From Branchiostoma floridae (taxonomy: Eukaryota > Chordata > Leptocardii > Amphioxiformes > Branchiostomatidae), in NCBI RefSeq assembly GCF_000003815.2, contig NC_049983.1, forward strand, positions 1-64,000: DNA of 64,000 nt, given 5' to 3'. The notes beneath the pieces are model-generated. The model did not search any database and was not told where the DNA came from. It worked only from the letters and a program-made list of their open reading frames with translations. This document shows positions 15,401 to 50,900 of the stretch, piece by piece; within the stretch, counting starts at the first letter, position 1; every line of letters starts with the position of its first letter. The translations under genes were made by a program, and so were the position numbers.

Positions 15401-15447
15401 TCTTGTTCAGCATGGTCTTTGCGAACTACATGACCAATCTGATGTGA
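3154..15447 (+). CDS. Class C beta-lactamase-related serine hydrolase, 5'-partial, four exons seen
   Basis: Exons 3154-3426, 4073-4332, 13182-13352 and 14912-15447 join in phases 2, 1 and 1 and give about 412 C-terminal residues ending at TGA 15445-15447. Motifs in order: YNN with [11 protein letters not shown] and LQPLGM (second catalytic box of class C beta-lactamases and penicillin-binding-protein-like esterases); [19 protein letters not shown]; then HSGG-x3-F with a SVNGP strand (third box). The last exon adds a roughly 110-residue beta-rich tail and a hydrophobic C-terminus, suggesting a membrane or surface-anchored protein. The N-terminal S-x-x-K exon is missing and would lie upstream of 3154 or in a gap. 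The substrate cannot be inferred; animal members are hydrolases of mostly unknown substrate. An antisense P450 gene lies in the second intron. Confidence 0.85.
4073..4332 (+). CDS. Hydrolase exon B
   Basis: The acceptor GTTATTAG precedes 4073 and the donor AGAG|GTACTT follows 4332; phase 2 in, phase 1 out. It encodes the helical-subdomain signature around [18 protein letters not shown] and ends in [11 protein letters not shown], which continues into exon C. An inverted-repeat element begins only about 20 bp after the donor. Confidence 0.85.
4353..4507. mobile_element. Short inverted-repeat element (MITE), ACGTCACAT type
   Basis: The ends are inverted: ACGTCACATGTCCAACCCAG on the left against CCCGGTCTGGTATGTGACGT on the right, with a second internal inversion (AAAATTTCATGTAT region). 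About 155 bp, no coding capacity. A related element is at 35985-36162. Confidence 0.7.
4940..5335. repeat. Direct repeat, about 150 bp, two good copies plus one degraded
   Basis: Blocks starting near 5065 and 5210 are nearly identical over about 120 bp (GAAAATGGTATACCTGG ... ACTCGAGATGTTGTTGATGG). A more diverged third copy precedes them from about 4940 (GGTCTGTATGTAGGTCAACA ... GATATTTGGTAGG). The same theme (GATATTTGGCAGATATGTAG ... GGTCAAGTTC) recurs at 12300-12550, so it is probably a dispersed family rather than a local minisatellite. Confidence 0.75.
5775..5969. mobile_element. MITE with about 42-bp terminal inverted repeats
   Basis: The left end AGTTCACCTTTATCCATTGG and following bases are mirrored by the right end ending GGATAAAGGTGAACT; the terminal repeats extend through CTATATCCGTTGCTTTT with almost no mismatch. 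About 195 bp, no ORF. It lies 10 bp beyond the stop codon of the P450 gene. A sister copy is at 12970-13169. Confidence 0.9.
5980..6158 (-). CDS. P450 last exon (haem-binding loop)
   Basis: The acceptor TTTATTTCCAG precedes 6158. The exon enters in phase 1, as in CYP2 genes, and reads [18 protein letters not shown] to stop TAG at 5980-5982. It supplies the haem-ligand cysteine and the L-helix, but the preceding exon that would end in F-x-x-G is not in the assembly. Confidence 0.85.
5980..10297 (-). CDS. Cytochrome P450, CYP2-like; one internal exon missing from the assembly
   Basis: Six exons (10297-9913, 9363-9221, 8766-8556, 8151-7868, 7734-7546, 6158-5980) join in frame except between the fifth and the last. 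The product is a microsomal haem monooxygenase: an N-terminal membrane anchor (about residues 18-42), a proline-rich hinge ([15 protein letters not shown]), an I-helix AGTETT, a K-helix ETMR (E-x-x-R), and a haem loop GRRVCLG with the cysteine ligand. The exons seen give about 463 residues. CYP2 proteins are near 500, so about 48 residues (meander, P-x-R-F, start of the haem loop) are absent; that exon should lie between 7546 and 6158, where a gap and foreign sequence sit. The helix-C tryptophan position reads GPGFRQRKR, with F in place of W. The substrate cannot be inferred. Confidence 0.88.
6175..6745 (-). mobile_element. Penelope-like retroelement remnant (GIY-YIG endonuclease end)
   Basis: Minus-strand frames encode [20 protein letters not shown] (Y-V-G, then E-R-S-L-x-x-R-x-x-E-H), the GIY-YIG nuclease region found at the C-terminus of Penelope-like elements. 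After a stop at about 6503 and a shift, a second block ([20 protein letters not shown] ... YLPLL, about 6470-6355) matches the usual end of such proteins. The RT domain is absent and the ORF is broken. Flanking sequence (GTTAATAGAATTTTCATCAA) is shared with 8164-8360. Confidence 0.7.
7049..7330 (+). CDS. Light-harvesting chlorophyll-binding (LHC family) protein fragment, probably algal contaminant
   Basis: One open frame runs from a TAG at 7034 into the N gap at 7332 without an internal stop. It contains [14 protein letters not shown] and [17 protein letters not shown], the conserved pre-helix FDPLGL and helix E-x-K-H-G-R-x-A-M-L signatures of the chlorophyll a/b and fucoxanthin-chlorophyll protein superfamily, preceded by a helix-2-like [20 protein letters not shown]. 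The family is photosynthetic and has no role in an animal. GC content and third-position GC jump sharply at about 7050 compared with the AT-rich flank. The piece abuts a gap, so it sits at a contig end. The best explanation is feed-alga (haptophyte or diatom type) sequence joined into the scaffold; horizontal transfer is possible but much less likely. Confidence 0.85.
7332..7431. other. Assembly gap (100 N)
   Basis: An estimated-size N run directly after the LHC fragment and within the span where the missing P450 exon should be. Confidence 0.99.
7546..7734 (-). CDS. P450 exon 5 (K-helix)
   Basis: The acceptor TGTCAACACAG precedes 7734 and the donor CAG|GTATAG follows 7546; 63 codons, phase 0 to 0. 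It contains [15 protein letters not shown] with the invariant E-x-x-R and then the PKGTQ segment. Confidence 0.9.
7868..8151 (-). CDS. P450 exon 4 (I-helix)
   Basis: The acceptor TTTTCTCCAG precedes 8151 (phase 1 in) and the donor AAG|GTACAG follows 7868 (phase 0 out). It encodes [11 protein letters not shown] and the oxygen-activation motif [18 protein letters not shown]. Confidence 0.9.
8164..8360. mobile_element. Internally deleted copy of the Penelope-like element flank
   Basis: It matches 6175-6302 (GTTAATAGAATTTTCATCAA ... GAGTGACCCAGTTCTCGCGA) and then jumps to sequence matching 6700-6745 (TATTAACTGTGTACATACGT), so the coding middle is deleted. The 22-bp ends GTTAATAGAATTTTCATCAA are inverted relative to each other. 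It lies in the P450 intron between exons 3 and 4. Confidence 0.7.
8556..8766 (-). CDS. P450 exon 3
   Basis: The acceptor CTTTTTCAG precedes 8766 and the donor GGAG|GTAAAT follows 8556; phase 0 in, phase 1 out. It reads [20 protein letters not shown] then [14 protein letters not shown], a strong CYP2-type match (PFD, N-V-I-C, F-G-x-R-x-D/E-Y). Confidence 0.9.
8810..9140 (+). mobile_element. Non-LTR retrotransposon (LINE) 3' end
   Basis: The plus frame ending at 9048 reads [16 protein letters not shown] then [20 protein letters not shown], the usual C-terminal tail of LINE reverse-transcriptase ORFs (S-F-F-P-R-T, W-N-x-L, S-L-x-x-F-K). A 3' UTR follows with GTGGTTATACCGGCTATATA and a tail of ATACAGAT-like repeats. 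5'-truncated and inserted in the P450 intron between exons 2 and 3. A weaker relic of the same tail is at 35185-35260. Confidence 0.75.
9221..9363 (-). CDS. P450 exon 2 (helix C)
   Basis: The acceptor TTCCCCAAG precedes 9363 (phase 1 in) and the donor AGG|GTAGGA follows 9221 (phase 0 out). It encodes [20 protein letters not shown] and [13 protein letters not shown], the CYP2 helix-C region. The haem-propionate tryptophan of W-x-x-x-R is replaced by phenylalanine. Confidence 0.85.
9745..9845. repeat. Cluster of palindromes, TATCCCAGAAGCGCTTCTGG type
   Basis: A perfect 24-bp palindrome occupies 9817-9840, with a near-perfect copy at 9753-9777 and a half copy near 9799-9815. The GGATATCC-like core is also scattered over 9455-9740. 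It lies in P450 intron 1. Origin unknown; possibly a decayed foldback repeat. Confidence 0.7.
9913..10297 (-). CDS. P450 exon 1 (membrane anchor)
   Basis: ATG at 10297 has GCC next to it and is followed by [16 protein letters not shown], a hydrophobic anchor [20 protein letters not shown], basic LRRS and the proline hinge [14 protein letters not shown]. It ends at AAAG|GTGACT in phase 1. The length of 128 codons fits CYP2 first exons. Confidence 0.92.
10470..10761. mobile_element. TAGCCTGGGTACC-type MITE with 9-bp target duplication
   Basis: TAGCCTGGGTACCAT at 10479 is inverted at the right end (ATGGTACCCAGGTTA, ending 10752). TCAGATTGG flanks both sides (10470-10478 and 10753-10761). The 9-bp duplication suggests a Mutator-like transposase. 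The interior is GC-rich and non-coding. Confidence 0.85.
11025..12300. mobile_element. Foldback-like element built from 31-bp hairpin units
   Basis: The left end (GTGGTTGTGGGGCAAAACTA then CGAAAACCTCCCC) is inverted at the right end (GAGGTTTTCGTAGACTTGCG then GTTGTGGG). Inside both ends are arrays of TTCAGCACTGGAAAACCAGT GCTGA-type units: three at 11068-11155 and about thirteen at 11758-12265. At 12022-12146 the units are spaced exactly 31 bp apart. Each unit is an 8-9-bp stem with a short loop. Terminal repeats made of short subrepeats are characteristic of foldback elements. No transposase is seen. Confidence 0.65.
11160..11640 (+). mobile_element. Non-LTR retroposon 3' tail inside the foldback element
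   Basis: The insert between the two hairpin arrays ends in GCAATAAAGGTCTTCATTCA with a (CATT)n tail at 11612-11632, a typical LINE/SINE terminus. No coding domain is recognisable in the remainder. Confidence 0.45.
12970..13169. mobile_element. MITE, sister of 5775-5969, abutting a splice acceptor
   Basis: The left end ATTCACCTTTATCCGCGG and right end CCGCGGATAAAGGTGAAT are inverted, with CCGTTGCTTT continuing the repeats inward. The right boundary is 12 bp before hydrolase exon C, so the upstream part of that intron end is transposon sequence. Confidence 0.88.
13182..13352 (+). CDS. Hydrolase exon C (HSGG box)
   Basis: The acceptor TTTGCCCTCAG precedes 13182 and the donor ACAG|GTACAA follows 13352; phase 1 to 1. 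It encodes [17 protein letters not shown] and SVNGP, the third active-site box of the beta-lactamase-related fold. It follows exon B's [11 protein letters not shown] directly in the spliced frame. Confidence 0.85.
13383..13802. mobile_element. Inverted-repeat element with long arms
   Basis: Left-arm sequence (GGACATAGGAGTTTTCTTTT ... CTTCTAACTGGAGTTCTGCT) reappears inverted at 13684-13802 (AGCAGAACTCCAGTTAGAAG ... AAAACTCCTATGTCC). About 420 bp. A single arm of the same family lies at 40284-40455. It starts 31 bp after the donor of hydrolase exon C. Confidence 0.8.
14560..14791. mobile_element. MITE with CACTGCACTTGCGTCA termini
   Basis: The left TCTCACTGCACTTGCGTCA and GTCACTGCGGGGTTC are inverted at the right as GAACCCCGCAGTGAC and TGACGCAAGTGCAGTGAGA. 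AT-rich interior, no ORF. Confidence 0.8.
14912..15447 (+). CDS. Hydrolase last exon (tail domain and hydrophobic C-terminus)
   Basis: The acceptor CACCAATAG precedes 14912; phase 1 in, TGA at 15445-15447. It encodes a beta-rich tail ([34 protein letters not shown]) with several N-x-S/T sites. It ends in [18 protein letters not shown], which reads as a transmembrane or GPI-signal helix. Candidate AATAAA signals are at 15621 and 15822. Confidence 0.82.
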
Positions 15448-15496
15448 TATCACGACAGAATGTTAATCCACATGACTTGATTTTATAAATGACATT

Positions 15497-15597
15497 CATG
15501 CGCGCGATCGTTCGAATGGTAACGATCACCAGTCGCATTGGCAGGAAGCGTACCTCTGGGAAACGACCAAAGCACAATATGGCTGGATTCCAGGCTA
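15497..15597. mobile_element. Solo arm of the TAGCCTGGAATCCAG family
   Basis: The run from ATGGTAACGATCACCAGTCG through GGCTGGATTCCAGGCTA matches the right arm of the long-TIR element at 40884-41444, but no opposite arm is present nearby. Confidence 0.7.
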
Positions 15598-17264: not shown

Positions 17265-18130
17265 TGTCAACAATCAGGACGAGCAAGGCGGGAAGAAATA
17301 GCTTGGCCGAGTTGACCAGGGTTTGGGCCGAGTTAACGCTGGCCGAAATTCTAGATTGGTCAGAGCTTGCTGAATTTCAGCATCGCCCGAGCATCGACTG
17401 TATATTTTTAAAACAATCTGCTTCATCACAAATTGGACGGGGCTCGGTGTTTGACTCCGGAAAATTCAAGTGGTTGTCCTTTCTGCTTTTTTATTGTACA
17501 ACTGACATCACGCGGACGGACGAGCTTTTAAAAGTCGCCCGAAGCCCGCGTAACCGCCAAAACGCCGGTCATAGTCCGGCCGAAAATGTCCATTTGGAGC
17601 TTGTCGACAAATCGGCCGAGCTAAACTCTTGATTTGTAAAGGGTTGCTAGGAGTTCAGACCTGGAAAAACCAGTGCTCGGAGAAGTTCAGCACTGGAAAT
17701 CCAGTGCTGAGGTGTGAGCTTCAGTACTGGAACAAGGCCATTCGTCAGCACTGACCGCCCAGTGCTAAAGCCCCGTTTACAAATCAATAATTGAGCTCGG
17801 TCGATTTGTCAGCGCGAGCTCTAAATGGACATTTTCGGCCGGAGTATGACATTTTCGGCAGGAGTTTGGCGATTACGCGGGCTTCGGGCGACTTTTTCAA
17901 GCTCCGCGTGATGTCAGTTGTACATTAAAAAAAAAGCAGAAAGGACAATCACTTGAACTCTCCGTAGTGAAACACCGAGCCCCGTCCAATTTGTGACGAA
18001 GCCGATTGTTTAAAAAAATACAGCCGATGCTCGGGCGATGTTGAAATACGGCTAGCTTTGACCGATCTATAAATTCGGTCGGCGTTCGCATGGATTGTAA
18101 AGCCGGCGTAAGGCCGATTCAACCGTTGAT
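17265..18130. mobile_element. Foldback-type inverted repeat with hairpin-unit centre
   Basis: The left arm (about 17330-17642) and right arm (about 17770-18100) are inverted copies; for example GACGGGGCTCGGTGTTT at 17439 is mirrored by AAACACCGAGCCCCGTC at 17969. The right arm has a short internal duplication (GACATTTTCGGC). The 130-bp centre holds TTCAGCACTGGAAATCCAGT-type units like those at 11025-12300. No ORF of a known transposase. Confidence 0.75.
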
Positions 18131-18563: not shown

Positions 18564-18768
18564 GTCCGCCGAGCTCCTACAAAGCGATCCCTCTGAAACG
18601 CCTGTACTGTTCGAGCGAGGCCTGAAGCTGACAGACCCGGACCCTACAGAGCCGGAGTGGGACGACTGTACAGGTGTCTCCGGCTCTGCAAGGGGCACGT
18701 CCTCTGGTTACATCTGCCTGGTCTTGTTCAGCATGGTCTTTGCGAACCACATGACCATCCTGGTGTGA
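18564..18768 (+). pseudogene. Truncated duplicate of the hydrolase last exon
   Basis: From about 18574 the sequence matches 15254-15447 closely and stays open to TGA 18766-18768 ([20 protein letters not shown] ... [12 protein letters not shown]). The upstream part of the exon and all other exons are absent, and an in-frame stop lies near 18547. It is either a dead fragment of a paralogue or its only exon in this window. Confidence 0.75.
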
Positions 18769-18789
18769 TATGTCGAGTGTATGTTAGGC

Positions 18790-21700
18790 CAGACTACCTT
18801 AATGTTATGAACGACATTGATTTTCACCTGTTAAAAAAACACATGTCACCCACATGTTCTGGGGTCTACAGAGGATTTTAAGCATAAAACCAAGTCAGTG
18901 TGACCTTGTTGGAATTTAGAGTCAGCTTGTAAGGCTCTGGGATTTCCTCGCTTTGGAAAGTTTTTTCTCCAGTTTTCTGTTATAGCCCCCGAAATGTTTG
19001 GTACCGCATTCTTAACATTGCAGTTGCTAGCTGTACACCTAGCTGTACAGTAAAGTAATACCAGTCAGTATTGACCTGAAGAAAGTAACAGTCACCGAAA
19101 CGTCGGCAAGGTAAATAACGACTGGTTGTTATCTAAAATATTACATTAAAACTCCAACCATGCTAACTTGAAAAGGAAGACAACACACAAAATACACCTC
19201 TAATATTCCTTTATTTTTTTTGTTTGTTTATCAAAATTTTGGGTAAGAACACGTTACGTAGTTCTCTACTACATAGGAGGTTCTCGTCCGTCCTCCGAGT
19301 CTCTTGTGACATCAAAAGGACTAGAAAGGCATGGTTCAGTGGTACTTTGATACAAATTGTGCCTTGATTTACCCAATAACTTTCGCTGTGGAAATATAAA
19401 AATGCTTTGTCTCTATATACGGCCAGTCTATGTAATAAATATCTTAGACAATTGTTTCATTGGACGTTTTTCTTTCTTTACATAAATATCAGCTTTGCTA
19501 GTAAGCATCCTATCTTTTACCCCAGGTTGTTGAAAATGTTTGGGTTGTGTGCATGCTTGCAGTGTTAAGTATACGAGGTTGTGCAAAATCATGACATTCC
19601 TTACACTTACTGTCTACCGAACACCATTTCCTTGCAACAAACAGCAAATATGGCAACTCTGATGCTTTCATAACCCCCTAAAGCTCCTCCTGTACATGGG
19701 CAAATTCTTGTCGCCACCGGTGGTTAGAAAACAAACAAACGCTTCATCTTTTAGCAACTTCAAAAATGCGTCATTTTTGTACCCATCAAGTATGGGCCAA
19801 CATCTTTCTTACGTATAGACTTGGTATGCAGTGAAACATATTACAAGGCACAATTCCCAGAGAATACCCAGGTTTATATCAGTTTCTTTCCTTTTTGTGT
19901 TCTTAGTCAATTGGGCCATGTACATCTCGTGAGCGCGTATTTCATCGCTTTTTGGCAACAAGTCGTGCCCCTAGTTACTCGTGCATAACAAACGCTCGCA
20001 ATTGTGACAACATCTCTGTCAAAAACAGTCAGTGGTAGAACTGTGTACCTAAACATATTTCAGATACAGGTACAGTAATTTAGGTAAAGGTCCGGGCTTA
20101 AACAAGTTTGCTCAAATATCTGTAAGTCATACAAGTAACCAACTCTCTTTTGAATAATTGTATCTCAAAGCAATATTCTTGCAAGTTCTTTAACCGTAGG
20201 ACTGCCACAACAGTCCTCGTTGACAAGGAATTTACCCATCTTAAAGACCTAAGTCTTAAAATTGGTGTCCACTAGTATTTCAGTTTACTCAGGTCCAGGT
20301 ACACCTGTACATACCTGTACATGTACCTACACTATTTCATAGGTATGGACATTAGGTACACAGCCCTAGTCAGTGGTGAAGTGTATTACTACCTAACACA
20401 TCATTGCTTCTTCTACAGCTGCCAGTACTTTGATAACACTGATCAGAAAAAGCACTGCAAGTACAAAGCATGACGTTAGTACAAGTAAGCAACATCGTAG
20501 TCATCCCTTTATAATAGTTATCCTTCATAGCAGGTTTCAGGGCTTTGGTTTATTATGTCTACCTTCACAAAAGGTGGGAATTTTGTTTTTGCTCCGTTTC
20601 TTCTTCTTCTCTTCCCTTTCCAAACAAATAAGGGCAATGACCTCGATCAGACGCCTGTCACCATGGTTACTGGAGGTGCTTGCAGACCTCCTGTGATGTT
20701 CGATTTCATAATGTAGCAAGTGGAAGGACAGGGCTGGTCTTTGTTTGAGAAAGAACAAACCGGGCAGTAGCTTGTTACACTAGACCATGTGAAGGCAAAC
20801 ATAACACATTTGCTTGAAAATGTTGACAATTCTACTTATGTTTTCTGATTGTATATCAGTATTTTGATTAGCTGACTGGCAGCTTGAATTCTAATATACA
20901 AGTAGAAAACATTTCACAGTATTCCAACAATGTCAAGCCCTGCAGGTTGCTATGAAGGTTACAGTATAGTATAGGTGAGTCCTTACCTACTTGAATACAA
21001 TAATAGACAATGTAACAGCAAGCAAGAATCCCAAAGTGTCACACAATTGACATAATTACATGTGAACAACATGACTAGATGGAAAATCGTCTTCGTGGCA
21101 GCATCATATATGATCTGTGCATCGGTTTTGTAACATATTTCACATCTGGATTAGCGCCATTCAATAACATATTACTGTAATATACTAAATAAGACCATAA
21201 AATCATGTACCAATCATCACACAGCTATGGCACAGGAGGTATACTGGAGTATTCAGAAATACGCTATAGGATATATCAAATAATGACATTTCATAAGTAT
21301 TGCAATCTGAAATCTGAGAGCAGACACCATTGTGGTGGCGGCTCCCTTTTAAAACCATGCTAACAAAATAATTCACTTACTGAACGTTCACCTGTCAACC
21401 TTGTTAGACAAGCATTTAGTACCATACTTTCTTTCAAAATAGTTATGACATTATATAGATGTTAGAATATAACACGATGGCTATGGACATAATCACCAAT
21501 CTGGTAATACACCACCACTTGCAATACCGTATCCAGTACTAATGGCATTTCATAGAAACTATTGCCTAATCTGAAATGGACAACTCACCAACAAGGGCAC
21601 ATTTAATGTTGTCCCCTCACAAAAAAATCTTTCAATGTCTTTTGTTAACATCATTACCAGTGACTTCTATGACAACACTGCGTAATAATGCAAATATCAT

Positions 21701-27014: not shown

Positions 27015-30000
27015 CTGCAGGACAAATAGAACGTCAGCCTTAAGCTTATGATCTCTTTTTACATAAATCTACATTTGTACTAAGCATATAAAGATAATGC
27101 ATAAACACTTGTACAAGTTGAAAAGACAAAAAAAATTTAACAGTTCTTGGTGAATGTCAATGTGCAGATGTTGACACATCACTTTCAGTGTAGTATTTGT
27201 TGAAAGATATACACGAATAAATTCTCTCCTTCTTTTTACTGTTCCTGTGGGACACAACTAGGAAGAAAAAAGTTTGTGAATCAATCTCTGCCTACCGGAA
27301 ATTTCTCCAAAGGCATAAATTGTACCTACTGTCACTGACATACCTAAAAACATGCAATACCACATACATACGAACAAGTACACGAACACACAGACAGACA
27401 CACACACACAAATACACACACATACAATGTTCAAATATCTGCTACTGTCACTCCTCTAAGTTGCAGTGCTATTAGAAAGGGTTGCAGTCAAGAATATTGT
27501 AAGACATGTCTGACACCTTTCGGTATAAATGCAGTTGACTGTTCTACTATACAGTCAAACTTGATCTAATGACCACTTGCACAAGACGACATTCACCTCA
27601 AGATGACTGCTTTTTGACGGTCCCCAAATTTCCCCCATAGACACAAGTATGACACTGTACCTTCTGGCTCCCTTGGCAGTTCTCATGTGATCCAGCATGA
27701 TCCTGCTGGGCGTCTCCCCGTTCACCATGCAGATGTGGTGGTACAGTTGTGCGAGCTCCTCGCTAACCGTCACCAGCTCGTCCTGTGTCATGTTGATGCT
27801 GCTCTGGCCCTCGCTAGCCAGCTCGCTCGTCGAACACAGCCTGTCCTCCAGCTGGCGGATGGTCTGTTTGGGACAGAAGTGAGAAAACTGTCAGATTTGT
27901 CGTGACTTCAGCACTAAAACGGCATTGCTGTAATGTATAACAACTGGAGTCGGCACGCATGCATGCCAGTTTGGGGGGATGGCTGGGGACCAATTCATAT
28001 ATGAAATGCAGTCACTGGAGTCACCTAAATTCCAAGCAGATGTATTGGTCAGGCTTGTTTTGTGTGTGTTTTCTGTATTTCTATGTCTCCCTCTGTATCA
28101 ATGCACTCTTTACAACTACATGTACATGCATAAGTAGAGACAGACTTAGAAACCAGAAAAGACAACAAAGAGCCTCAGGTCAAGCTTGAAATGTATGTTC
28201 TGGCTGCGGATTAGGAAGAATGTCTACAATAGAACCTCGGCTATCAGACAGCTTTTGGATCAATGCAATCTTTTTCAAGATAACTAGAGGAATTGGGCTG
28301 GACTGCCAATTCATTGAAAGAAATTAAACAGTACTCGTTAGAAAATGCTTACATATAACATCAACGGATTAACCATTTTAAAGACCAGGCTAAAACTGTA
28401 GGGTCTAGTTCACCAGCTACTAGTCTTGTCTTTTATCGTGCAAATGTTTGAAAAACTCAATGTCACTTCCATGTAGCGTAGTCATACAACAAATCAGTGT
28501 GGTACAAATGTACAATAATTAACTTTTCATATCATTCCGGTTAACAACTAGCCTGGGTACCATCCGGGTAGTAGTTTGCTCCCATGTTCGCTTCTGCTAC
28601 CCATCCGTGGCAATGTACATTCAAATCTTTTGGTGTTGACGTCAGTTAATGAACGAATTAAGGAATGATTTATACTTTTAGAGCGCTCTGTCGAACAGGT
28701 GTTGTAAACAGGAATTCCAACACCTGTTCGAATACAGCGATCAATTTAACCATAATTTTCAAGTGTCTTGTGTGTCTGGTTAGGCACCAGTCAGCGCCCT
28801 TGTTAAAAATTTTGGACGAGAATCAAATACTCCAGGTATTAGAGATGTTGAAGTTTCTAAATGGAACAGGAGAAAAACAACTCTATATAATGTTTAATAA
28901 ACTAAGTTTGGAGAGAACTACTTCCTGGATGGTACCCAGGCTAGTTAACAACAGTTTGTTGCCTGTGGTAGCAAGGAATCATGGTACAACATTGAAGAAA
29001 CACAGTTCATCTGGGTTCCTTGAATCAAGTAGGCAGTCTTACAAGATGTTGGAATTTCTGCATCCAATAGTGGCTTCCTGATAAATTGGAGGTTCTAATA
29101 ATCGAGGTTGTACTGTTCTTATTGCCCTAGATCTCTCATTTGCAGGAAACGATCACAACATTTCAACTGTTTCATGTAACAGTTGAGGAAGAAAGTATCA
29201 ATGAATGGAGTTGGCCTAGTTGTTGAAAAAGAGTAGCAAATGCAAGACAAAACTTGAATAAGTATTGCATGTTGGGTCTGCCTTAGATCATGACTTGTAC
29301 TCGTTACTTAAACATCACACCATTTCACCAATTGAAATGTGCTAGGAAACAAACCAGAAAAGAAAAGGTAAAATCATCGTTAACTGAGCATGTGATGCAC
29401 TAGTATGTATGCTGCACATTCTGCTTGACCGAACGACAAACCAAATGCTTGGTAACCTGGCAGTTCTCTTGCTCACGGTTAGACGGGGGGAAGGCTGAAC
29501 GGTAAACAAAAGTACAGGCAAGGACAGGACAGGTAAACTTTTGTTCATGACACTCCAGCTCACAGAAAAGGGTCTAGAATTTGGTACATTTCTCTGGTTT
29601 GACATTAGTAGCAGGGGGTGAAAACAGTGAGTGGTAAAACATTTCAAATGCCGAAGCCCTAAGTGAATGCAAGACAAAAATTTTCACAGCAAGAATGCAC
29701 ATGTCATGTACAATTTTAAGCAAACATAGAGTTAAACGCATTCATGGAGAGGGTCAAGCAATAAGCCAGATACATTTGTAAGCGTAAGGGCACTGAGTGA
29801 AGGAAGTTTGTACTGGTACATATAAAGCAATATTGGCCAGCAAAGCTTTGACCATGGCCCGATATCATCACAATTTTGCTGTGGGCAAATGTTGAGCCAC
29901 ATTTATGTTAGTGCAGTAAAGAACCAACATTCTCTTTACCAAAGCAAGGCTTGGCGTATCTACCTGAGGTGCAGGGGCTGTGATAGCGGCGGCGGCGGTG

Positions 30001-32963
30001 ATACTAACAAAAAACGTCTACACAAGCCAAGTTACTGGATGAGAAAAGCTCTTTAAATGTTGAAAGCATCTTCCATGACGAGCTAATTATTAACGGTCCT
30101 GACCTGTAATCTTTCAAGCATTTGTCTGTGGAGTTGCGAGACTTGAGCCTCCAACCCATGAATGACGGATGCGGACTGCCTCAAACCCCACTCCTGATAG
30201 AGGACGAGAGAGAAACCCCTCAAGGAATCTTTACAGACCAGTTGGACGTCTCAAGTATTTCCTTAAACTTCTGTCTTAATAATTTGTATTGGCTTCTTTC
30301 AGTGGCAATGGGACCTGTCGACAGATGCCTTTAAACCTCTTTTTGTATCTTTGCATTACACAAAGGGACCATAAAGTTCCAAAATTCGGCTTCTTTGAGG
30401 TTGATCGTGCAGCAAGTTTAATACAAAGAGAACGTAGTAGTAGTAGTGGCAGAGCTTGCAAAGCAGTGCATTTGTTTGCCATCTAAAAGTGCAAGTTATC
30501 ATAAACAACACAGAGAAACGGCTAAGGAGAGTGCACACTGTGCTGTGTGTCCAGTATCGTGACAAGTGTAAAGACATATGCTGTGCAAACTCGCATCTCG
30601 GTCGAACTGTAGACGACGACTATTACAGTAAGCATTATGGCAATAGTGCGTGTGTATATGCTTGAAAAAGCGAGTATACTTTAGGGCCGAGACTTCTTTC
30701 TGTTTGTTGAAGTTTGTTGGGTACAAACATTTTGGACCAGTAAGTTACATGTATGATACTACGTAGATGAACGTGGCATGGTTACCTGTCTTGCTTCGAT
30801 GTTCCTCTTGTTCAGAGCAGACATCTGAGCTTGCATCTCGCTGAACCTGGACTTGTGTCTCCTGTCCTCGTCTTCCTGACTCTCCTGAAACATCTTCAGC
30901 TCTGACTCCAGGGTCCTCAATTTCGCCTGCAACATTTCTTTGCTCTCGTGGTCAACCTGTAAAATTGTGGGGGGACGACTCTTATCATTCCACATGATAG
31001 TTAACAGTTCAGTACTATCAAGAGTATATAAGAGTTACTAGTATGTACTATGACGTAGGGTCCTCAATTTCGCCTGCAACATTTCTTTGCTCTCGTGATC
31101 AACCTGTAAAATTGTGGGGGGGACGACTCTTATCATTCCACATAATATCATTGGGTAACAGTTATTATCTAGCATATATTTACTATAAAGCATATATGAG
31201 AGAAATGGATCATTCTCTAGAGTACTCAATTTCAACATTGGGAAATCCGATGACTCTTATCATTCCACATAATAGTTAACAGTTCAGTACTATCTAGAGT
31301 ATATGAGGGTTATGTACCATGACGTAGGGTACTCAATTTTGCCTGCAACATTTCTTTGCTCTCATGGTCAACCTGTGTAGTTGTGTGTGTGTGGGGGGGG
31401 GGGGGGGTGTTCTTATCATTCCACATAATAGTTACTATTTAGAGTATATGAGAGTTATGTACCATGACGTAGGGTACTCAATTTTGCCTGCAACTATTCT
31501 TTGCTTTATAATCTAATGGCAAAGTAGTGGAGGAACAACTGCACATATAGCATTGGCAGTTTAAAAGTTTTGTGTCTGTGATATCTTTGTTTCCTTCTGC
31601 TATTGGAGAGAAAGATATCAGCCAATCACATTGACTCTTGACTGCAGACGACGACGTGATTGGCTGATAACCTTCCCTTCAACAACAGGAGGGGTAGTAC
31701 CTGATTGGCTGATGGCTGGCCAGCCCAAGGCAGCAAGAAGAATAGATCAGGTATGATACATACAAGTATGGTATGACTTCAAGTACCCCTTGCAACTAAA
31801 ATGTGTTACCGTACATGTATCTCAGAGCAAAAGACGTAAAAAAAAGGAGGGGCCTGCGTGTCTTACCTTTTTCTTGGTGCCTTCGATCTCCGCAGTCATC
31901 TCAGACATCTTTAAGTCCTGCTCGGACAGTTTCTGCTGAGACTCCTGCAAAGTCTTCATCAGGGCCGCCTTCTCCATCTCAACCTGGGGGAAATTTGCAT
32001 ATCATGACATCATTTAAAACCCCACAATCCATCTGATTTTCTTTCTGTCACTTGTAAGTGTTGTATGACAACTGTATACATATGTATTTTTGTAGCCCTT
32101 GTCAATTAAACATTGAGCTGGAGATTTGGTGCCAGACAAGTCCTTGTGATGTTGCCGTTACAATGGGAAATTGAAGCATTCAAGGATCTAGAATGCAGGT
32201 TTCCACTCACCTGCCTCAACTTTAAGGCATGTCCCTGTAGCTCAACTGGCAGCGACCTCACAGTTGAGCTCCTACAAATGTATATGCAACTCGTTGGTAA
32301 CTCACGTGACCCTAGTCCATGTCCTGGGATGAGGACTGAACTGTCTTTCGGAAGGGACGTAAAATGGGGGGCCTGTGTTCGAGGAGGTGACTTGTGCAGC
32401 CCATACGACACTTGCTGACCTACGTACCACAACGCACTACAAGGTAACAACTCACCTGCTTCAACTGATGCTTCAGCTTCTGGATCTCCGACATGTGAAG
32501 TTCGCTGAGGAGGTCTGAGACGAGGCTGGGCCCCGGCTTGGCACCGTTGGTCTCCTCGTGGTAAACAATAACAACAACAACAACAACAACTCACCTGCTT
32601 CAACTGCTGCTTCAGCTTCTGGATCTCCGACATGTGAAGTTCGCTGAGGAGGTCTGAGACGAGACTGGGCCCCGGCTTGGCACCGTTGGTCTCCTCGTGG
32701 TAAACAACAACAACAACAACTCACCTGCTTCAACTGCTGCTTCAGCTTCTGGATCTCCGACATGTGAAGTTCGCTGAGGAGGTCTGAGACGAGGCTGGGC
32801 CCCGGCTTGGCACCGTTGGTCTCCTCGTGGTAAACAACAACAACAACAACAACTCACCTGCTTCAACTGCTGCTTCAGCTTCTGGATCTCCGACATGTGA
32901 AGTTCGCTGAGGAGGTCTGAGACGAGGCTGGGCCCCGGCCTGGCACCGTTGGTCTCCTCGTGG

Positions 32964-32995
<32 letters not shown>

Positions 32996-35900
32996 TCACC
33001 TGCTTCAACTGCTGCTTCAGCTTCTGGATCTCCGACATGTGAAGTTCGCTGAGGAGGTCTGAGACGAGGCTGGGCCCCGGCTTGGCACCGTTAGTCTCCT
33101 CGTGGTAAACAATAACAACAACAACAACAACAACTCACCTGCTTCAACTGCTGCTTCAGCTTCTGGATCTCCGACATGTGAAGTTCGCTGAGGAGGTCTG
33201 AGACGAGGCTGGGCCCCGGCTTGGCACCGTTGGTCTCCTCGTGGTAAACAACAACAACAACAACAACAACAACTCACCTGCTTCAACTGCTGCTTCAGCT
33301 TCTGGATCTCCGACATGTGAAGTTCGCTGAGGAGGTCTGAGACGAGGCTGGGCCCCGGCTTGGCACCGTTGGTCTCCTCGTGGTAAATAACAACAACAAC
33401 AACTCACCTGCTTCAACTGCTGCTTCAGCTTCTGGATCTCCGACATGTGAAGTTCGCTGAGGAGGTCTGAGACGAGACTGGGCCCCGGCTTGGCACCGTT
33501 GGTCTCCTCGTGGTAAACAACAACAACAACAACAACAACTCACCTGCTTCAACTGCTGTTTCAGCTTCTGGATCTCCGACATGTGAAGTTCGCTGAGGAG
33601 GTCTGAGACGAGGCTGGGCCCCGGCTTGGCACCGTTAGTCTCCTAATGGTAAACAATAACAACAACAACAACAACAACTCACCTGCTTCAACTGCTGCTT
33701 CAGCTTCTGGATCTCCGACATGTGAAGTTCGCTGAGGAGGTCTGAGACGAGGCTGGGCCCCGGCTTGGCACCGTTGGTCTCCTCGTGGTAAACAACAACA
33801 ACAACAACAACTCACCTGCTTCAACTGCTGCTTCAGCTTCTGGATCTCCGACATGTGAAGTTCGCTGAGGAGGTCTGAGACGAGGCTGGGCCCCGGCTTG
33901 GCACCGTTGGTCTCCTCGTGGCCACCGTCCCCCCGACTGCCCGCAGCGGCGGCGGCGGCGGCCTTGTCGTTGTCGTAGGTGAGATTGAGGGCACCGAGAG
34001 TGTCGTGACTCCAGCTGGAGAAGGAGTCGATGCTCATGAGGGAGTTGAGCTCGCGGCGCAGGCTCAGCTTCTGTTCCCTCTCCTCCTTCAGGGTGGTCAG
34101 GGCTTCTTCAAGCTGCCCAAGGAAAGATGGAGAGGCACTTTAAGTACAACATGTAACGCAGGGTTCTAGCCAGCCGAATTTTTGCAGCTGGGGACAGACA
34201 AAAATTTTGCCCATTTCGGACGAAAATCAGCATGTAATGATATTTTGCAAAGATCTCCAGAAATTTAGCACAGATGCCGTTGAACCAAGCTGAGTCTACT
34301 CTACCAGCAAAAATCTGCCCCTCAATATGCAGGAAATAGTGTTTCAGAGGGTCTTGATTTCAATAACGCCCTTGGATTGTTGCGCCTTCCACCCTCGACA
34401 GGATTTCCATTCAAAATGCCGGGAAAAAAAAATTCAGGCTGGCTAGAACACTGATACTGTAACAATAAATGTATATTGTTATAAATGATAGTCTTGTAGT
34501 TGTGTTTGTGTGTGTGCAGGGAAAGCCATGGGACAGGATGTTAAGGGAAAGAACAATAACCCACCAAACAAGAATCTCTTTCATACTTTCTTTTCTGGTA
34601 AGTGAACATGCAAGTGTGACTTCGACAGGTGTGTCTATGAGGTGGAGCAGAATACACGTATCCTCAACTACTAGAGATACTCTTTTATCTCAGTTGCCAA
34701 CTAGTAGACACTACTGGAGGCTCTAAGATCTTAAGTAAGGTGCATGTACAGTAAGCCATGCACTAAAATGTGTCCAACTCTCAGCCAGTAGCACACGGGA
34801 CCCAAGCAGCACATGCATGCATAATGTAGTCCCAAAGGTACACTGCACAGTGCAAAGCACAATTTTGGACAGACCTTCAGTATAAACAGTCAAGCTACAT
34901 TTGTAGACACATACATGTATGGGAATCTTATAACTACAAAAGAAACTAAGTATGAAACTTATAATGATAATGGATATTGCAGGAAACGGAACGTATTTTC
35001 TCAAGCCAACCAAACTCAGTCTCAGTTCAGTATACGGAAAATCCAATTTGAACACAACAACATTCTTTCATCGTTGTGTTTTATCGACAAAATAACTTCT
35101 CTTTGCAGCAATGTGCCAAATTCAAGGAAGCCTGGAGCAAAACCAGCAAAGCTGACATGTAACAGGTCATTCGGTGTAAATACAACTGCGTGCCTGCGAA
35201 GCTGGTGTGTTATGCCGAAGGACGGTTAAGCTGCCTATACAAAACATAGTCTGAGATAGATTTAAGGGAGCAAACATGCTGTCTTAGATTTATTCAGCCC
35301 AACGTTTGCAGGCAATACCAGACACAAGAAGCAGATCTGCTTTCAGCATGCCTTGGTGCAAAGCGATTTTGTTTCTCCGTGGAAGGATAAGAAAAAAAGC
35401 GGAGTTTCCCTGCTAGTGGGAAGACAGGTTCCACCCACCTTCGGCAAAACCTCACCGTCCCAAAGAGAGCATGCAGGGAATGAGCGATGGAAGAATTCGG
35501 GAGAGGTCGTTGACCCAAGTAGGTGACAAAGACAGACAGCTTCCAAGATTAACTCTTGCTGCGCACGGTCAACAGGTTTGTAACACGGACAATCAGTCTA
35601 CGAACTGGCATCTTCCCGCGTAAAACATAGCTCGAAATAGCTAGAAACGCCTCAATTTGCAGCTAATTTTTTTCACAATTTTCTTTGTAACATTCCTAAA
35701 CTTACATGAATTCAAGTACTTTATTAGCTGATTTTCTGTGAAAAATGTGTTTGAGTTTTGAACTTCAAAATCTTCCTTTTCTTAAGCATGAGAGCTGTCG
35801 ATTGTCACCGAAAAGAGCCAATGCGGTGGAGTATCAGTTTTTAACTCCAGAGGTTAGTACTAGTAGTAGTACAAATGTAACATACATACACGCATACCCC

Positions 35901-38900
35901 GTCAACCCAACATATACACAAAAAAGTTGAAAAACAGGACAAGAAAGAGGTCCACGACATGTTAGACTATCTACAACTAAGGCCTACGTCACATTTCCAA
36001 ACCTGGACCCAGCCAGCTGCAGGCAGCTTTCAGGAACGAAAACTCTAAAAGACAACAAACTACACAAGACATAAAGAGAATAGTCATAGGCATATTTTGC
36101 GTAAACATTTCTATTCTTTGTTTTCACCAAAAAGCCCGGCCAGGTTTGGAAATGTGACTAACTTGGGTGGTACAAAGAGCAGTGGGGAAGGATAGCATGG
36201 AGGTGAAAAGGGCAAGGCCCAACATGAAGGGACAGAAATAAAGATGTGTGATAGAGCACATAAGGCTATAGCTGAAAAGTTAATCCATACAGAATTGCTA
36301 GACCTAAGCTCAGCTCTCACATATAAAGCTCTCTGAACAATTCAGCCAGCAACATAGACAGCATCAAAACAAAAACAAGTGTTTTTCTCTGCTTCAAGCC
36401 CTAAAAAATGTGCCACAAGACAAAACGCCATACAGCTTATGCTTCGCATTGCGTTGCAAGCGACACCAGCAATAAGCCAGGAGAAGGATAGGATTTTATT
36501 TTAGTTTTACCTTGACAAAAGGTTCTAATCAGTTGGGAGAAGGAGGGGCATGTTAGAGACTGTCAAGGCTCGAAATACTTTTATCTGTTAGCTGTACCAT
36601 AGCCTGGGTGCTATCCTATTGGTAGTTTATTGGAGCTCTCATAACAAGGATAGAACCCAGGCTACCTGTAATATATGTATTGGGAGTTGTCAAAATTCTA
36701 TCTAAAATTTGGAAAGTCTTTCTGCAAATATGCAAAATTGAATATTCATTCCTTACTACAGATGACTACATGCACATACAACATTCATTGGTTGTACATG
36801 TATGTGTAGGCATTTTGAGCCCTGACACAAGGGAACACGGCAACTAAAGGAGTCGAATGGAAAACTCCTGATCTACATACATTTGCAGGTGGGCTGCCAG
36901 CATGGAGGATTCCCTGTTAATGCGGAATCCGGGAGCCAAAAACGGGACAGAAACACAGAACATGCACCGTTACTGCCACAAGCAAGGATTCGCTTGGGGA
37001 GGGGGACCTTTTAAAGTATGGCTAGCGACTTTGTAAAAATACTACTAAAATGTAGAAAAAACGTAACTTCATTGGCACAATATAAAAGGAATTTTCATAT
37101 CACTCTATGTGGATACAAGATAGCAGTACGTTATTTTTGCAAAATGGTAGAAGCTCTTTTTAACAGTGATACTTTCATACACTTCAAAAAAAAATCTGCA
37201 AGACATTTTACAAGACAATGTGCAGCTAATGATGCTTCACAGATGGTGTACTTGACAAGGTAGCTCAGGCATAGTGCATGGGGCCTTGCATTGTTAGCCT
37301 CCACAACAGACTCTACAGACAACATTTCAAAATTGCCATTTTTGGCTGGCTGGAAACTTTTCATGACGATTCTTTGAGATTGAAGAATATAAACAACTTG
37401 TAATATTTTGGCAAGACAAAAGAATACGGATTTAGTACCATGATTTCATATTGCAAAAAAAAAAAGAAGAGGTATTATGTGGCTCTCTGCTTTTTAGAAA
37501 ATAAGGCATCCATGAAATCAGCAACGAAAAAGGCAATATCTAGAGAATCTTAACCCCATCTTCGGCATTGAGTCAGCTAGTCGAACTTGCCAAAGCTCAA
37601 TGTTTCTGACTTAGGGAGAAGAGAAGCTACTACAGTGAGCATAGTTCAGTACCTAGAATGGTCATGTACTGGACAAGCTTGTTAACAAAAAGAAACAAAT
37701 GCTTGACACTGAGTAGGACAAAATCAGGACATGGATATCGATGTATTGAGATAACTGTATAGAATCAGCCTAAAACAGGCAATATCGAGAATGCTTGCTG
37801 TAGAGTCTGTTATAGAGGCTTGTGTTGTGAGTGGACAGCCCAGTTACCTGTTTCTCTGCAATCTGTTTCAGCTTCATGGCTTCCTCCATCTGACTGTTCA
37901 GTAGCTCTGTTTCCTCCATCAGTCGCTTGTTCTCGTGTTTCAGGGCCTCGTACTCAACCTGGGAGGACTTCAGCACAGACACCTGGCACAAACAAACAAA
38001 CGTTGATCAGAGATCTGTTTCAGCTTCAAGGTCTCCTCCATCCGTCGCTTGTTCTCGTGTTTCAGCGCCTCGTACTCAACCTGCGAGGACTTCAGCACGG
38101 ACACCTGGCACAAACAAACAAATGTTGATTTAAGAGAAAGAAGCAATTGTACTTAGACTGCTACAAATCCCCCATTAGAATTTCAGCAAAGACACCTAAC
38201 ACAAACAAACAAATGCTGATCAGACTTTTATCTAAAAGTATGAGAAAGAAGTAGTAATCGTACTACACTGCTACACATCCCCTTCAAGGATTTCATCACA
38301 GACACACAGACTAGAGTAAACAAAGAAAACTTGGTCTGTTGTTTTCAGGAGAAAAGAGCACTTGCAGAACATTGCTGTTAGAATAGGTCACAGTCCTTTG
38401 GAGGTAATGCCAGTATTGTCCAGGGGCATCCCCACCTCATCCTTCTTCCATGGTGTGGAGTTGTAGAAAATCTTACTAGAGCTTCCTGAGTGGCAAAGGT
38501 ACTGTTAGACTGGCCACAGTTGAAGACTGTGGACATATGTGATCTAGTAGCATCCCTGGTCAATCAGAATTTCATACTTGTCAGAGGATGTGGTCCTCAG
38601 GGTAAGAGCTGTCTAGCTTCAAAGTAGGGCGTCCAATTTCTTACTATTTTTAGAATAGTGCGTCCAAAAGACGCATGGACGCATGCCTAACTCAAAACCT
38701 TCTTACCTGTTTCTGTAGCGAGATGTTTTCATCCTCCAGCTCTCCGTAGTCCTGCATGAGCCGCGCCTCTCGGAACTTGTACTCCTTGATCTCGTCTCGC
38801 AGACCTTTCCTCTGTTTCTCCAGCGTCTCGATGGCCTGGCAGTACTCATGGTTCAGCCCTCCCAGCCTCTCGTTCTCCGACTGGACGTTACTCAGAACCT

Positions 38901-47900: not shown

Positions 47901-50900
47901 CTGACATCCTCAATTGAGGCAAAGCATGATGACTTTTCAAGGAACTAATAAAAAATAATAATATTAATAGTACAAACTGAAGTGCATGTAGTGTTAACAC
48001 ATTGATGTACAATCCACATTGTAACACAACTTTCTAAATTCATTTCAAAAATTGTTGGGACTCAATTATCAGCTGGAATTTGCCACAGAATTCTTAAAAT
48101 TCTATTTGTAGCATTTTTTTTTCAATTCTATTTCCAAAAGACCACCCTGTTGGTAGACTGGCCTCTTCGAAAGCCATGTTGTGCCTTGAGCAAGAAAAAT
48201 CCAGAAATACTGGCCTGATAAAATCAATGAACTGGCACTACCGTTCCGCAAAACGAGTAATTGTGCTGATAGCCCAGATTTTGATAACATTCCAAGACTG
48301 CATTTTATGACGTTTATAATTACTGCCCTTCCTGTCATTTTCGAGTGGTAACGACTGACCGTTAGTGCAAACCAGGGTGCCAGTTTTCCGCCACTACTGG
48401 CATTACCACTTTGGTTCAATGTTTCGTCCGTGTTAATATTTCAGCTATGCCTCTCTTCTGGGATTCTAGCCAAAAGATTTCTGACGTCAACGCATTTTTA
48501 CGCTGACAAGTTCTAAAATTCTTGTTGCAGTGATTTTTTCGTCTGTGTCAAGAGTATATTTAACAGTGTTTGCAAAAGGCAATACATTGTACATATCATA
48601 GCAGATATTTTCCAATTCTAATCTGTCCTAGGACAACCTATAACAATCCGAGATTCTGCTAGTACTAGTAGTAGTAGTAGCAGTGTTTCCGCCAGACCTC
48701 AGCTGGGAGGCCGTCCACCTTGGGGCGCGAAAACCGCGAAAATTAAATTTAATTGCAAAACCGCGAACATTAAATTTAATTGTAAAACCGCGAAAATTAA
48801 ATTGAATTGTAAAATCGCGAAAATTAAAGTTGATGGTTAACTGTCGCAAGAAAAAACAAAACAACTAACGTCCGATTAAGGTATCTCGGTTGGCTAAATT
48901 GGCATTTTGACCTTCCACTGTTTTCTTATTAATAGATTAAGAAAGAATGGAGCCGTAACGAATGTTGATAGATGGGCACTAGAGAATTCTAATTCTGATT
49001 TTTTTTGGGCCGAATTTATGACGTCATCATTTTTATTACCTCTGATATTATTTTTTTCTATGACAAAATACAGCACTTTGGTACATACCACTGTAATGAA
49101 ACTTCGTTTTTCGTTGCATAATGATGGAAGCTACAAACGTAGTGTTGCGCAAACTGATATCTCCTAATGATCTGTAGTAATTAGAAAATGTTTGTTTTCA
49201 TCTAATTGAATCNNNNNNNNNNNNNNNNNNNNNNNNNNNNNNNNNNNNNNNNNNNNNNNNNNNNNNNNNNNNNNNNNNNNNNNNNNNNNNNNNNNNNNNN
49301 NNNNNNNNNNNNTTAGTAGATATCAATTTGCGCAACACTACGTTTGTAGCTTCCATCATTATGCAACGAAAAACGAAGTTTCATTACAGTGGTATGTACC
49401 AAAGTGCTGTGTTTTGTCATAGAAAAAAATAATATCAGAGGTAATAAAAATGATGACGTCATCAATTTGGCCCCAAAAAATCAGATTTAGAATTCTTTAA
49501 TGCCCATCTATCAACATTCGTTATGGCTCCATTCTTTCTTAATTCATTAATAAGAAAACAGTGGAAGGTCAAAATGCCAATTTAGCCAACCGAGATACCT
49601 TAAGTTCAGTGCCGAAGTGCTATGATCTGTGCCGCGTACCGGTATGCAGCACCGAACGGGTACTACGACTTTTAAAACGTTCTAGAAACGGTTCTTGGAC
49701 TTTCAAAAAAGAAATAGCATTTGTATATATTCTCTTTTATGTTGTAGTATACTTATAAATCATCTAAAAACTTCCAAAGATCGAGAAATTTGCGTTCAGA
49801 AATGACGAAAAACATCGTCTATCGGCGACAGTGAGCGTAATGGCGGCCGAAATCCCGCAATCTCACGTGGTGACTTCTCGCAAGATCTGGGAAAGCTAGC
49901 GACGTCACGGGAAACTAGCGCTGTGATTGGCTAGGATACACAACAGCTACTGACCGCCATTTTTGATGCGTATTTATCCCGAAAATTTCTGCCGTTTTCG
50001 GAGATTTTGCGGGCTCAAAACTCATATAAGAAGGAACCAAAGTTATACTTGATGTTTTTTACGTCCATCACCTCTTATGTGAACACTTTATTTTTCCGCT
50101 GTGTTGCCGATAACGAACTTGAAAGAGGTTGGGGATTTCCCGTGCCAAGCACCCGGTGGGAACATGTTTCTCAGATCATCGTGTTTTGTTTTGTTTACGC
50201 ATTACGATGATTGATGATGAAAACAGAGACTAAAGTTTTTAATATCTAGACAAAGTTAGTGTGTTTTCTTATTAGTTATCTCTCCCAATTACAACTATTA
50301 GTTTGTAGTGTAATATCGAGATCGACCTACCGCCAAGTTTTCGAAATGTGGCAGGGAAAATTCGCATAACTGAGACCTTGAAAAACGGGTTTTAATGAGA
50401 TTATCGTATGCAAAAGGCCGCCGACACACATTGTCAACAATCATAACAATAGCAAAACAAACAGTAAGCGGCTTTCTGACTGTGGACGGCGTCCCCGAGC
50501 GTCTAGCTTCAATACAAAACACAAAACTGCGGTTTACATTTATCGACTTTGTACAGATTTCTCGGCAAAATGTGGGTCGCATTTTTTTTATGAGGACGGC
50601 CTCTGTTTGCGTTCAAGCCATCCAAAACGAAATGAGACCGTCAATGGACGGGTGGACGCCCCTCTGGCGGAAACACTGAGTAGTAGTATAGGTTGGGTCA
50701 GGGTACACCAAACTGGACATGCTAACCCTAACCCAATATCCAGCGCTAGCAGAATTGCAGAATGTGCTTGAAGTTGGACAGATCCCAATCCAATATCAAA
50801 TCAAAACAGATTCTAGTTTGTCTTAAGACAGATTGTGGCCACAATCTGTAATGGTAATCTACACAGATTGTAGAACAGATCCCAGTTTGAATTCTAATCT

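What the first reader, a model, noticed from the sequence alone, without database searches (positions are those of the whole stretch)
32451..34112. Eleven-fold array of a BicD exon end, each copy with its own 5' splice site
The last ~105 bp of exon 5 plus its GTGAGT donor is repeated ten extra times with (CAA)n linkers. Copies are almost identical and spacing varies only in threes. Each copy could act as a competing donor. If TACCACGAG before each copy works as a weak acceptor, each would be a 99-nt, 33-codon frame-preserving cassette lengthening a coiled coil. A multi-donor array inside an essential adaptor gene is unusual.
Basis: partly seen in the sequence, partly recalled or inferred. Interest (0 to 1): 0.8.

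Follow-up and report, generated by a model that had tools for sequence, protein, structure and literature searches.

The report
Amphioxus BicD splice-junction minisatellite ("mirage")
In an amphioxus gene for a motor-protein adaptor, the end of one exon with its splice signal is repeated ten extra times inside the next intron; this is a large example of a known amphioxus oddity called a mirage, and it is most likely ignored by the splicing machinery.

Summary
On the minus strand, BicD exon 5 (33816-34112) is followed by ten extra tandem copies of its last ~106 nt, each with a CAG|GTGAGT donor. The same genome holds globin and Adh repeats whose unit lengths match published Branchiostoma mirages (157, ~150, ~59 bp). 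Mirages are minisatellites that duplicate exon-intron boundaries (PMC3087553, PMC3902484, passages), so this is a new, large member of a known kind. BicD carries more: acceptor-side copies at exon 4 and exon 7, and a short one at exon 9. Used as alternative sites, donors 2-11 and four extra acceptors tested all give premature stops. The proposed 33-codon cassette keeps frame, but 9 of 10 of its acceptors score below all eight authentic BicD acceptors scored, and adjacent-copy introns would be 31-43 nt. In P450 and kinesin samples 3 of 50 exon matches carry such duplications; over 82 matches, repeats cover 8 of 164 edges against 3.6% of distant positions. Best reading: near-neutral tandem-duplication debris, with the exon-attached site used. 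No RNA data were available.

The parts
33816..34112 (-). BicD exon 5 (297 nt), the authentic copy; its donor GT begins at 33815
   Evidence: Pfam PF09730 E 2.1e-19; joins in frame to exon 6 as [19 protein letters not shown]
32446..33921 (-). Tandem array: authentic exon 5 end plus ten extra copies of exon end + GTGAGT donor + (GTT)n linker, unit 130-142 nt
   Evidence: TRF score 2617; unit list; each copy matches the BicD profile
33683..33781 (-). Extra copy 2 (first extra copy), 99 exonic nt, donor at 33682; identical to exon 5 end
33544..33642 (-). Extra copy 3, donor at 33543; preceded by ATTAG instead of ACGAG, the best of the ten proposed acceptors
32456..32554 (-). Extra copy 11 (last), donor at 32455; runs into unique intron GTGAGTTGTTACCTTG
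31867..31983 (-). BicD exon 6 (117 nt), normal splice partner of exon 5
   Evidence: acceptor CCCCCAG, donor AAG|GTAAGA; weak similarity to BICD2 (E 0.006); in-frame join
37848..37982 (-). BicD exon 4 (135 nt), authentic
   Evidence: tblastn, BicD profile, in-frame join
37909..38305 (-). Second boundary duplication in BicD: copies of the exon 4 acceptor and exon start (acceptor junctions at 38104 and 38195, further degenerate copy to 38305)
   Evidence: 94% over 99 nt, 90% and 85% over 48 nt, 79% over 42 nt
30786..30956 (-). BicD exon 7 (171 nt), authentic
   Evidence: Open frame, splice sites and in-frame join; no BicD profile match
30910..31505 (-). Third boundary duplication in BicD: copies of the exon 7 acceptor and exon start (acceptor junctions at 31103 and 31372; older fragment at 31471-31535)
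   Evidence: 98%, 86% and 60% identity over 65 nt
27222..27254 (-). Weak fourth case: 33-nt copy of the exon 9 acceptor junction (authentic junction near 27014), 230 bp upstream in the intron
   Evidence: 87.9% over 33 nt, 42.8 bits; TGTCCCACAG|GAACAGTAAAAAGAAGGAGAGAA against TGTCCTGCAG|GAACAGTATGAAGAAGGAGAGAA

Best explanation
A donor-type 'mirage': a minisatellite formed by tandem duplication across the exon 5 / intron 5 boundary of BicD in an amphioxus (almost surely Branchiostoma floridae), expanded to eleven copies, with (GTT)n slippage in the linkers. The duplication left the complete exon and its own donor intact at the 5' side, so the ten extra half-exons became intron. Splicing most likely joins exon 5 at its own donor (33815) to exon 6 and removes the array; a transcript using a later donor meets a stop codon and is probably degraded. 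Shown here: anatomy, homogeneity, frame outcomes, further boundary duplications in BicD, and repeats matching published mirages in the same genome. Inferred: species, first-donor use, near-neutrality, degradation of mis-spliced RNA, and origin by slippage or unequal exchange (a 2-bp CC overlap joins intron TTACC to exon CCACGAG; the linkers carry one extra T).
For: Array and donors. The same scan finds repeats whose units match published mirages: globin offset exactly 157 bp (L013), globin offsets 150/305/463 (L017), Adh family with ~59-bp units (L019), against BflGb9 157 bp, BflGb6 150-160 bp and Adh3 10-72 bp in PMC3087553 (passages). That paper states that the Adh3 data and its globin RT-PCR suggest no interference with regular splicing. 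Frame outcomes: donor 1 gives an open frame through exon 7; donors 2-11 (10 of 10) give stops; the four extra acceptors tested at exons 4 and 7 also give stops. Census: 8 of 82 exon matches overlap local direct repeats, 7 of the 8 boundary-type on reading; coverage 1.1% in exon interiors, 3.6% more than 200 bp away, 8 of 164 at match edges: boundaries are neither spared nor clearly favoured, as expected if such events are tolerated.
Against: No RNA or second haplotype could be examined. All eleven donors are identical and score above six other BicD donors (12.8 against 7.4-11.0 for exons 1, 2, 3, 4, 6, 7), so leak to donor 2 (430-nt exon) is not excluded. Differences among the intronic copies fall mostly at third codon positions (4 of 5 sites, P 0.045 against 1/3), which pure neutrality does not predict; weighting by GC sites leaves P about 0.06. 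Random placement of the window's five local-repeat arrays rarely puts three on BicD edges (P 0.008; circular-shift test P 0.08); coverage within 100 bp of exon matches (6.0%) exceeds that further away (3.6%); and a weak fourth case exists at exon 9. So some attraction to boundaries is possible.
Confidence: 0.83

Rival explanations
1. Cassette array: extra copies are at times spliced in as 33-codon exons through the weak CACGAG| acceptor, lengthening the coiled-coil region.
For: Each of the ten 99-nt copies keeps the frame without stops; copy 3 has a better TTAG acceptor (6.3, above two of eight authentic ones); 3 of 5 variable sites are synonymous and 4 of 5 at third positions.
Against: 9 of 10 acceptors end in GAG and score 2.3-3.1, below all eight authentic BicD acceptors scored (5.9-10.9); adjacent-copy introns of 31-43 nt; 6 of 10 (GTT)n tracts hold no A; a stronger cryptic acceptor in every extra copy (7.7) yields a 49-nt frame-breaking exon.
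Confidence: 0.05
2. Regulatory decoy: the ten strong donor sites compete with donor 1 and tune BicD output through unproductive, stop-containing transcripts; copy number sets the level.
For: All 11 donors are identical and unmutated; all ten alternatives end in premature stops.
Against: Lack of decay is also explained by recent homogenisation (mean identity 98.8%); similar structures occur in unrelated genes without clear boundary enrichment; no test here shows selection for it.
Confidence: 0.08
3. Assembly artefact: the copy number, or the array itself, comes from misassembly.
Against: Copies carry individual variants and different GTT numbers, no N lies in 31801-34800, and repeats matching published mirages are present in this genome. 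The exact number 11 may still be wrong or allele-specific.
Confidence: 0.04

Closest known systems
Amphioxus mirages: globin BflGb6 and BflGb9, Adh3 (PMC3087553, passages; original Adh paper PMC117041 not held)
   Same: Head-to-tail duplication of an exon-intron boundary with splice signals kept, unit length in the same range, very probably the same species; BflGb9 is likewise donor-side.
   Different: Eleven near-identical donor copies in BicD against 3 and 6 repeat units reported for two BflGb6 haplotypes and one duplicate for BflGb9; several boundary duplications in one gene; (GTT)n linkers. Splicing was checked by RT-PCR there, not here. Adh3 copy numbers in print were not seen.
Lancelet PGBD5 tandem repeats over splice sites (PMC3902484, passages)
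   Same: 60-bp and 108-bp tandem repeats over splice sites of one gene, copy number differing between assemblies (2 or 7, 3 or 6).
   Different: Those copies are imperfect; one annotation had turned them into an unsupported exon, much like the cassette idea here.
Human internal tandem repeats at exon-intron boundaries in segmental duplications (PMC2812944, passages)
   Same: Tandem repeats at boundaries that can alter splicing and form new introns.
   Different: Human, recent paralogues, with transcript evidence for repeats kept or spliced out.

Membership tests
Amphioxus mirage minisatellite | Repeat unit spans an exon-intron boundary and carries the splice signal | tested here: met
   11 of 11 copies carry CAG|GTGAGT with at least 99 nt of exon 5
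Amphioxus mirage minisatellite | Head-to-tail minisatellite with similar copies | tested here: met
   Period 139, 10.8 copies; mean pairwise identity 98.8% in the exonic part
Amphioxus mirage minisatellite | Found in Branchiostoma | tested here: met
Fit of 513 Mb to B. floridae is recalled.
Amphioxus mirage minisatellite | Normal splicing is kept despite the copies | not testable with these tools
   No RNA data; only frame outcomes
Amphioxus mirage minisatellite | Copy number unstable between haplotypes or cells | not testable with these tools
   One assembly; only one such array found
Duplicated cassette or mutually exclusive exon array | Each copy has its own usable acceptor as well as donor | tested here: not met
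   9 of 10 proposed acceptors end in GAG with scores 2.3-3.1; one scores 6.3. Scores come from a recalled matrix, not from RNA.
Introner-like dispersed element | Copies at many loci in the genome | tested here: not met
   All 10 listed matches of the 301-bp query lie in this array; that search skips very common words and scores only the best candidates

The most novel reading that the evidence does not exclude
The array is a copy-number-variable splicing rheostat: U1 bound to up to ten decoy donors, or rare inclusion of 33-codon cassettes, changes how much full-length BicD is made and how long its coiled coil is, and the coding sense of the copies is kept because some are translated.
Probability: 0.06. 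Interest if true: 0.75.

Novelty: new member of a known kind. Interest (0 to 1): 0.4.

Why it matters
Mirages are natural half-exon experiments. Here ten strong donors lack an upstream acceptor of their own, while at exons 4 and 7 extra acceptors lack a downstream donor, all in one gene. Whether the cell uses only the copy fused to a whole exon is a direct in vivo test of exon definition. In the P450 and kinesin sample about 6% of exon matches (3 of 50, 95% interval 1-17%) carry such a duplication, so amphioxus may offer many replicates and a supply of raw material for new introns. It also warns annotators: gene predictors may call these copies exons, as happened in PGBD5 (PMC3902484, passages).

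Tried and rejected
Cassette exon: rejected as the main reading because of weak acceptors, very short introns and few branch-point A's. Read-through of the array as coding: rejected, every unit adds 1 mod 3 and stops follow. Dispersed element: rejected. Origin from a SINE-like tail at 32221-32450, which abuts the last copy: not resolved; a weak 37-bp and a 13-bp second match in the window, no tRNA or Rfam hit, and the genome search for it did not complete. Coding constraint on the intronic copies: third-position excess 4 of 5 here, 14 of 21 pooled with globin (8 of 11), kinesin (2 of 4) and Adh3 (0 of 1); I tallied the pool (P 0.002 against 1/3, 0.04 against 0.45). One indel-shifted Adh3 copy and the Adh-family L036 were left out of that tally. 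Re-seeding of copies from the constrained exon explains it as well. Boundary enrichment: not shown, mixed in the window. An earlier, smaller version of the census (62 loci, distant positions 4767 of 148862) is superseded. One search started exon 7 one base late; one search corrects it. The exon 4 acceptor score printed is one base off; one search gives 9.6. Exon 5 had no match among PDB chains.
Full report
Observation. The array is real. Tandem Repeats Finder reports 32446-33921, period 139, 10.8 copies. On the minus strand eleven identical CAG|GTGAGT donors follow one another at 130-142 nt. The first belongs to BicD exon 5, 33816-34112, which matches Pfam PF09730 at E 2.1e-19. The ten extra copies hold the last 106 nt of the exon (copy 3 is altered within the first seven of these); over the last 99 nt they differ from it at 7 of 990 positions. 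The linkers are GTGAGTTGTT(GTT)nTTACC with small variants. All ten spacings are 1 mod 3.

Gene context. A genome search with the BicD profile independently marks exons 2, 3, 4, 5, 8 and 9 and all ten extra copies (16 of 19 matches). Exon 1 rests on tblastn (E 2.9e-13), exon 6 on weak similarity (E 0.006) and its in-frame join. Exon 7 rests on its open frame, splice sites and in-frame join; the BicD profile did not match it. Further exons between 7 and 8 may exist. Exons 4-5-6-7 join in one open frame when exon 5 uses its own donor: [19 protein letters not shown], parallel to human LKQQLMQ|MEREKAGLLATL (recalled). The profile search also shows a second BicD-like gene on the same strand at C5:85812-91869 (the other 3 of the 19 matches); no run of repeated matches is seen there.

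More boundary duplications in the same gene. Exon 4 is preceded by copies of its own acceptor and start (94% over 99 nt, then 85-90% and 79% pieces; sequence). Exon 7 is preceded by copies of its acceptor and start (98%, 86%, 60% over 65 nt; sequence). Both sets contain copies more diverged than any in the exon 5 array. A weak fourth case is a 33-nt copy of the exon 9 acceptor junction, 230 bp upstream (87.9%). At a threshold of 50 bits and offset up to 700, 3 of the 16 BicD splice edges that I placed are covered by local direct repeats, and these are 3 of the window's 5 arrays. At the looser threshold (40 bits, offset up to 1000) it is 4 of 9 repeat clusters. A random-placement test for the five arrays gives P 0.008; a circular-shift test, which keeps the clustering of edges, gives P 0.08. 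Several edges were placed with recalled splice matrices and the exon 5 array was chosen beforehand, so these values flatter the result.

What it is. I recalled the term 'mirage' for amphioxus boundary minisatellites and searched for it. [quoted passage not shown] BflGb9, 157 bp, duplicate of the 3' boundary of exon 2. It cites the same in Adh3 (10-72 bp) with somatic instability, and states that the Adh3 data and its RT-PCR suggest no interference with splicing. PMC3902484 (passages) adds PGBD5 and troponin C. The original Adh paper is not held.

Is this that animal? The window is C5:1-64000 of a 513-Mb genome in 431 contigs. Searching that genome for globin (9 matches) and ADH_N (23 matches), and scanning each locus for local direct repeats, gave an offset of exactly 157 bp over a globin exon end (L013), offsets of 150, 305 and 463 over another globin exon start (L017), and about 59-bp units over an Adh-family exon start (L019). 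Reading the sequences shows the splice junction inside the unit in each. I did not compare them letter by letter with the published genes, but three matching unit lengths in the right families make Branchiostoma, almost surely B. floridae, the natural conclusion, and they serve as positive control for the scan. A further Adh-family mirage (L036) was also seen.

How common, and is it targeted? I added P450 (118 matches, of which the 30 best-scoring loci were cut) and kinesin (134 matches; 20 taken by the rule 'first twenty stop-free matches of at most 350 nt'; one of them, L071, had already caught my eye in the table). Of 82 exon matches, 8 overlap a local direct repeat (globin 2 of 9, ADH 2 of 23, P450 2 of 30, kinesin 2 of 20). 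On reading, 7 of 8 are boundary duplications; L063 is a 58-bp duplication inside a P450 exon that breaks its frame and was dropped, and L089 is a partial donor-side copy without its donor. Globin and ADH were chosen because mirages were known there; the other two families give 3 of 50. Local repeats cover 1.1% of exon interiors (355 of 31017), 3.6% of positions more than 200 bp away (6285 of 172967), 6.0% of the 100 bp next to matches (991 of 16400), and 8 of 164 match edges. Match ends are only approximate exon ends, and five ADH matches lie inside open frames of 1559-2368 codons, so their ends are probably no splice edges. No clear enrichment follows, though the near-exon value leans that way. 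The pattern fits a simple rule: local tandem duplications arise throughout gene bodies, those inside exons are mostly removed, those across a boundary survive because one copy keeps the whole exon.

Mechanism. Use of donor 2 adds 133 nt and brings a stop at the start of exon 6; donors 3-11 read into a stop inside the extended exon; the four extra acceptors tested at exons 4 and 7 also end in stops. So, of the sites tested, only the copy fused to the full exon is productive at each of these three places. This is what exon definition would choose: extra donors have no acceptor just upstream, extra acceptors no donor just downstream (inference from established splicing knowledge). Donor 2 would make only a 430-nt exon, so some leak is plausible; such RNA would probably be degraded.

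The cassette reading. A 99-nt cassette is in frame for all ten copies. With a rough recalled matrix the needed acceptor scores 2.3-3.1 in nine copies and 6.3 in copy 3, against 5.9-10.9 for eight authentic BicD acceptors (exons 2-9). The acceptors of exons 2, 8 and 9 were taken as the best-scoring AG near the similarity start, which flatters them. Splicing between neighbouring copies would need introns of 31-43 nt; skipping a copy would allow longer ones. Six of ten (GTT)n tracts hold no A, four hold one. A better cryptic acceptor inside each extra copy (7.7) gives a 49-nt, frame-breaking exon. In its favour, 4 of 5 variable sites among the intronic copies are third codon positions (P 0.045; about 0.06 after weighting by GC sites). 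A similar excess in the globin copies (8 of 11) suggests another cause: copies are re-seeded from the functional exon and record its synonymous changes.

Origin. The intron after the last copy reads GTGAGTTGTTACC and the exon before the repeat reads GGCCACGAG; the linker ends TTTACCACGAG, consistent with a join at a 2-bp CC overlap, with one extra T. This is inference. A SINE-like sequence lies just beyond (32221-32450), but its status was not resolved.

Verdict. A confirmed, large and homogeneous member of a known amphioxus class, in a gene with at least three such sites. No paper on a BicD mirage was found in the held library (search for BicD with amphioxus: 2 papers, both unrelated by their listings; mirage searches).

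Noticed in passing
window 7037-7331: GC-rich (54-74%) open frame matching Chlorophyll A-B binding protein (Pfam E 1.9e-4) and algal light-harvesting chains in the PDB (best E 1.1e-7, a fucoxanthin chlorophyll protein), starting abruptly after 36% GC sequence and ending at a 100-N gap: probably algal contamination built into the scaffold.
   Followed up: partly
G000:C5:85812-91869 (outside the window): A second BicD-like gene on the same strand, some 25 kb beyond the first exon of the BicD gene studied here: a nearby paralogue that could serve as a comparison for the array.
   Followed up: no
L071 (G000:C2:31967200-31968700): Kinesin exon with two extra upstream copies of its acceptor and exon start, unit 151 bp, 91-93%: a mirage not mentioned in the passages read.
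   Followed up: yes
L036 (G000:C2:5230621-5233785): Zinc alcohol dehydrogenase family gene with three extra copies of an exon start, units about 145 bp.
   Followed up: partly
L054 and L089: P450 exon with a duplicated acceptor side (offset 183), and kinesin exon with a partial donor-side copy (offset 140) that lacks the donor.
   Followed up: partly
L063 1447-1563: Perfect 58-bp tandem duplication inside a P450 exon that breaks the reading frame: young pseudogene, polymorphism or assembly error.
   Followed up: no
window 11068-12281 and 17649-17753: Arrays and stretches of a 31-bp unit with TCAGCACTGGAAAACGAGTGCTGA, each unit holding a short inverted repeat, at several nearby places.
   Followed up: no
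window 4975-5327: About 150-bp tandem duplication (84-94%) beyond beta-lactamase-like exons; not searched for coding content.
   Followed up: no
window 15255-15499 and 18576-18821: 87% identical pair; from the open frames, the second looks like a frame-shifted partial copy of the coding stretch at 14875-15447.
   Followed up: no
window 48876-49167 and 49313-49603: 95.5% inverted pair flanking a 100-N gap: an inverted repeat or a gap-filling artefact.
   Followed up: no
window 32221-32450: SINE-like sequence (A-box-like TAGCTCAACTGG, recalled motif) in intron 5 directly next to the last array copy; its genome copy number could not be checked because the search did not complete.
   Followed up: partly
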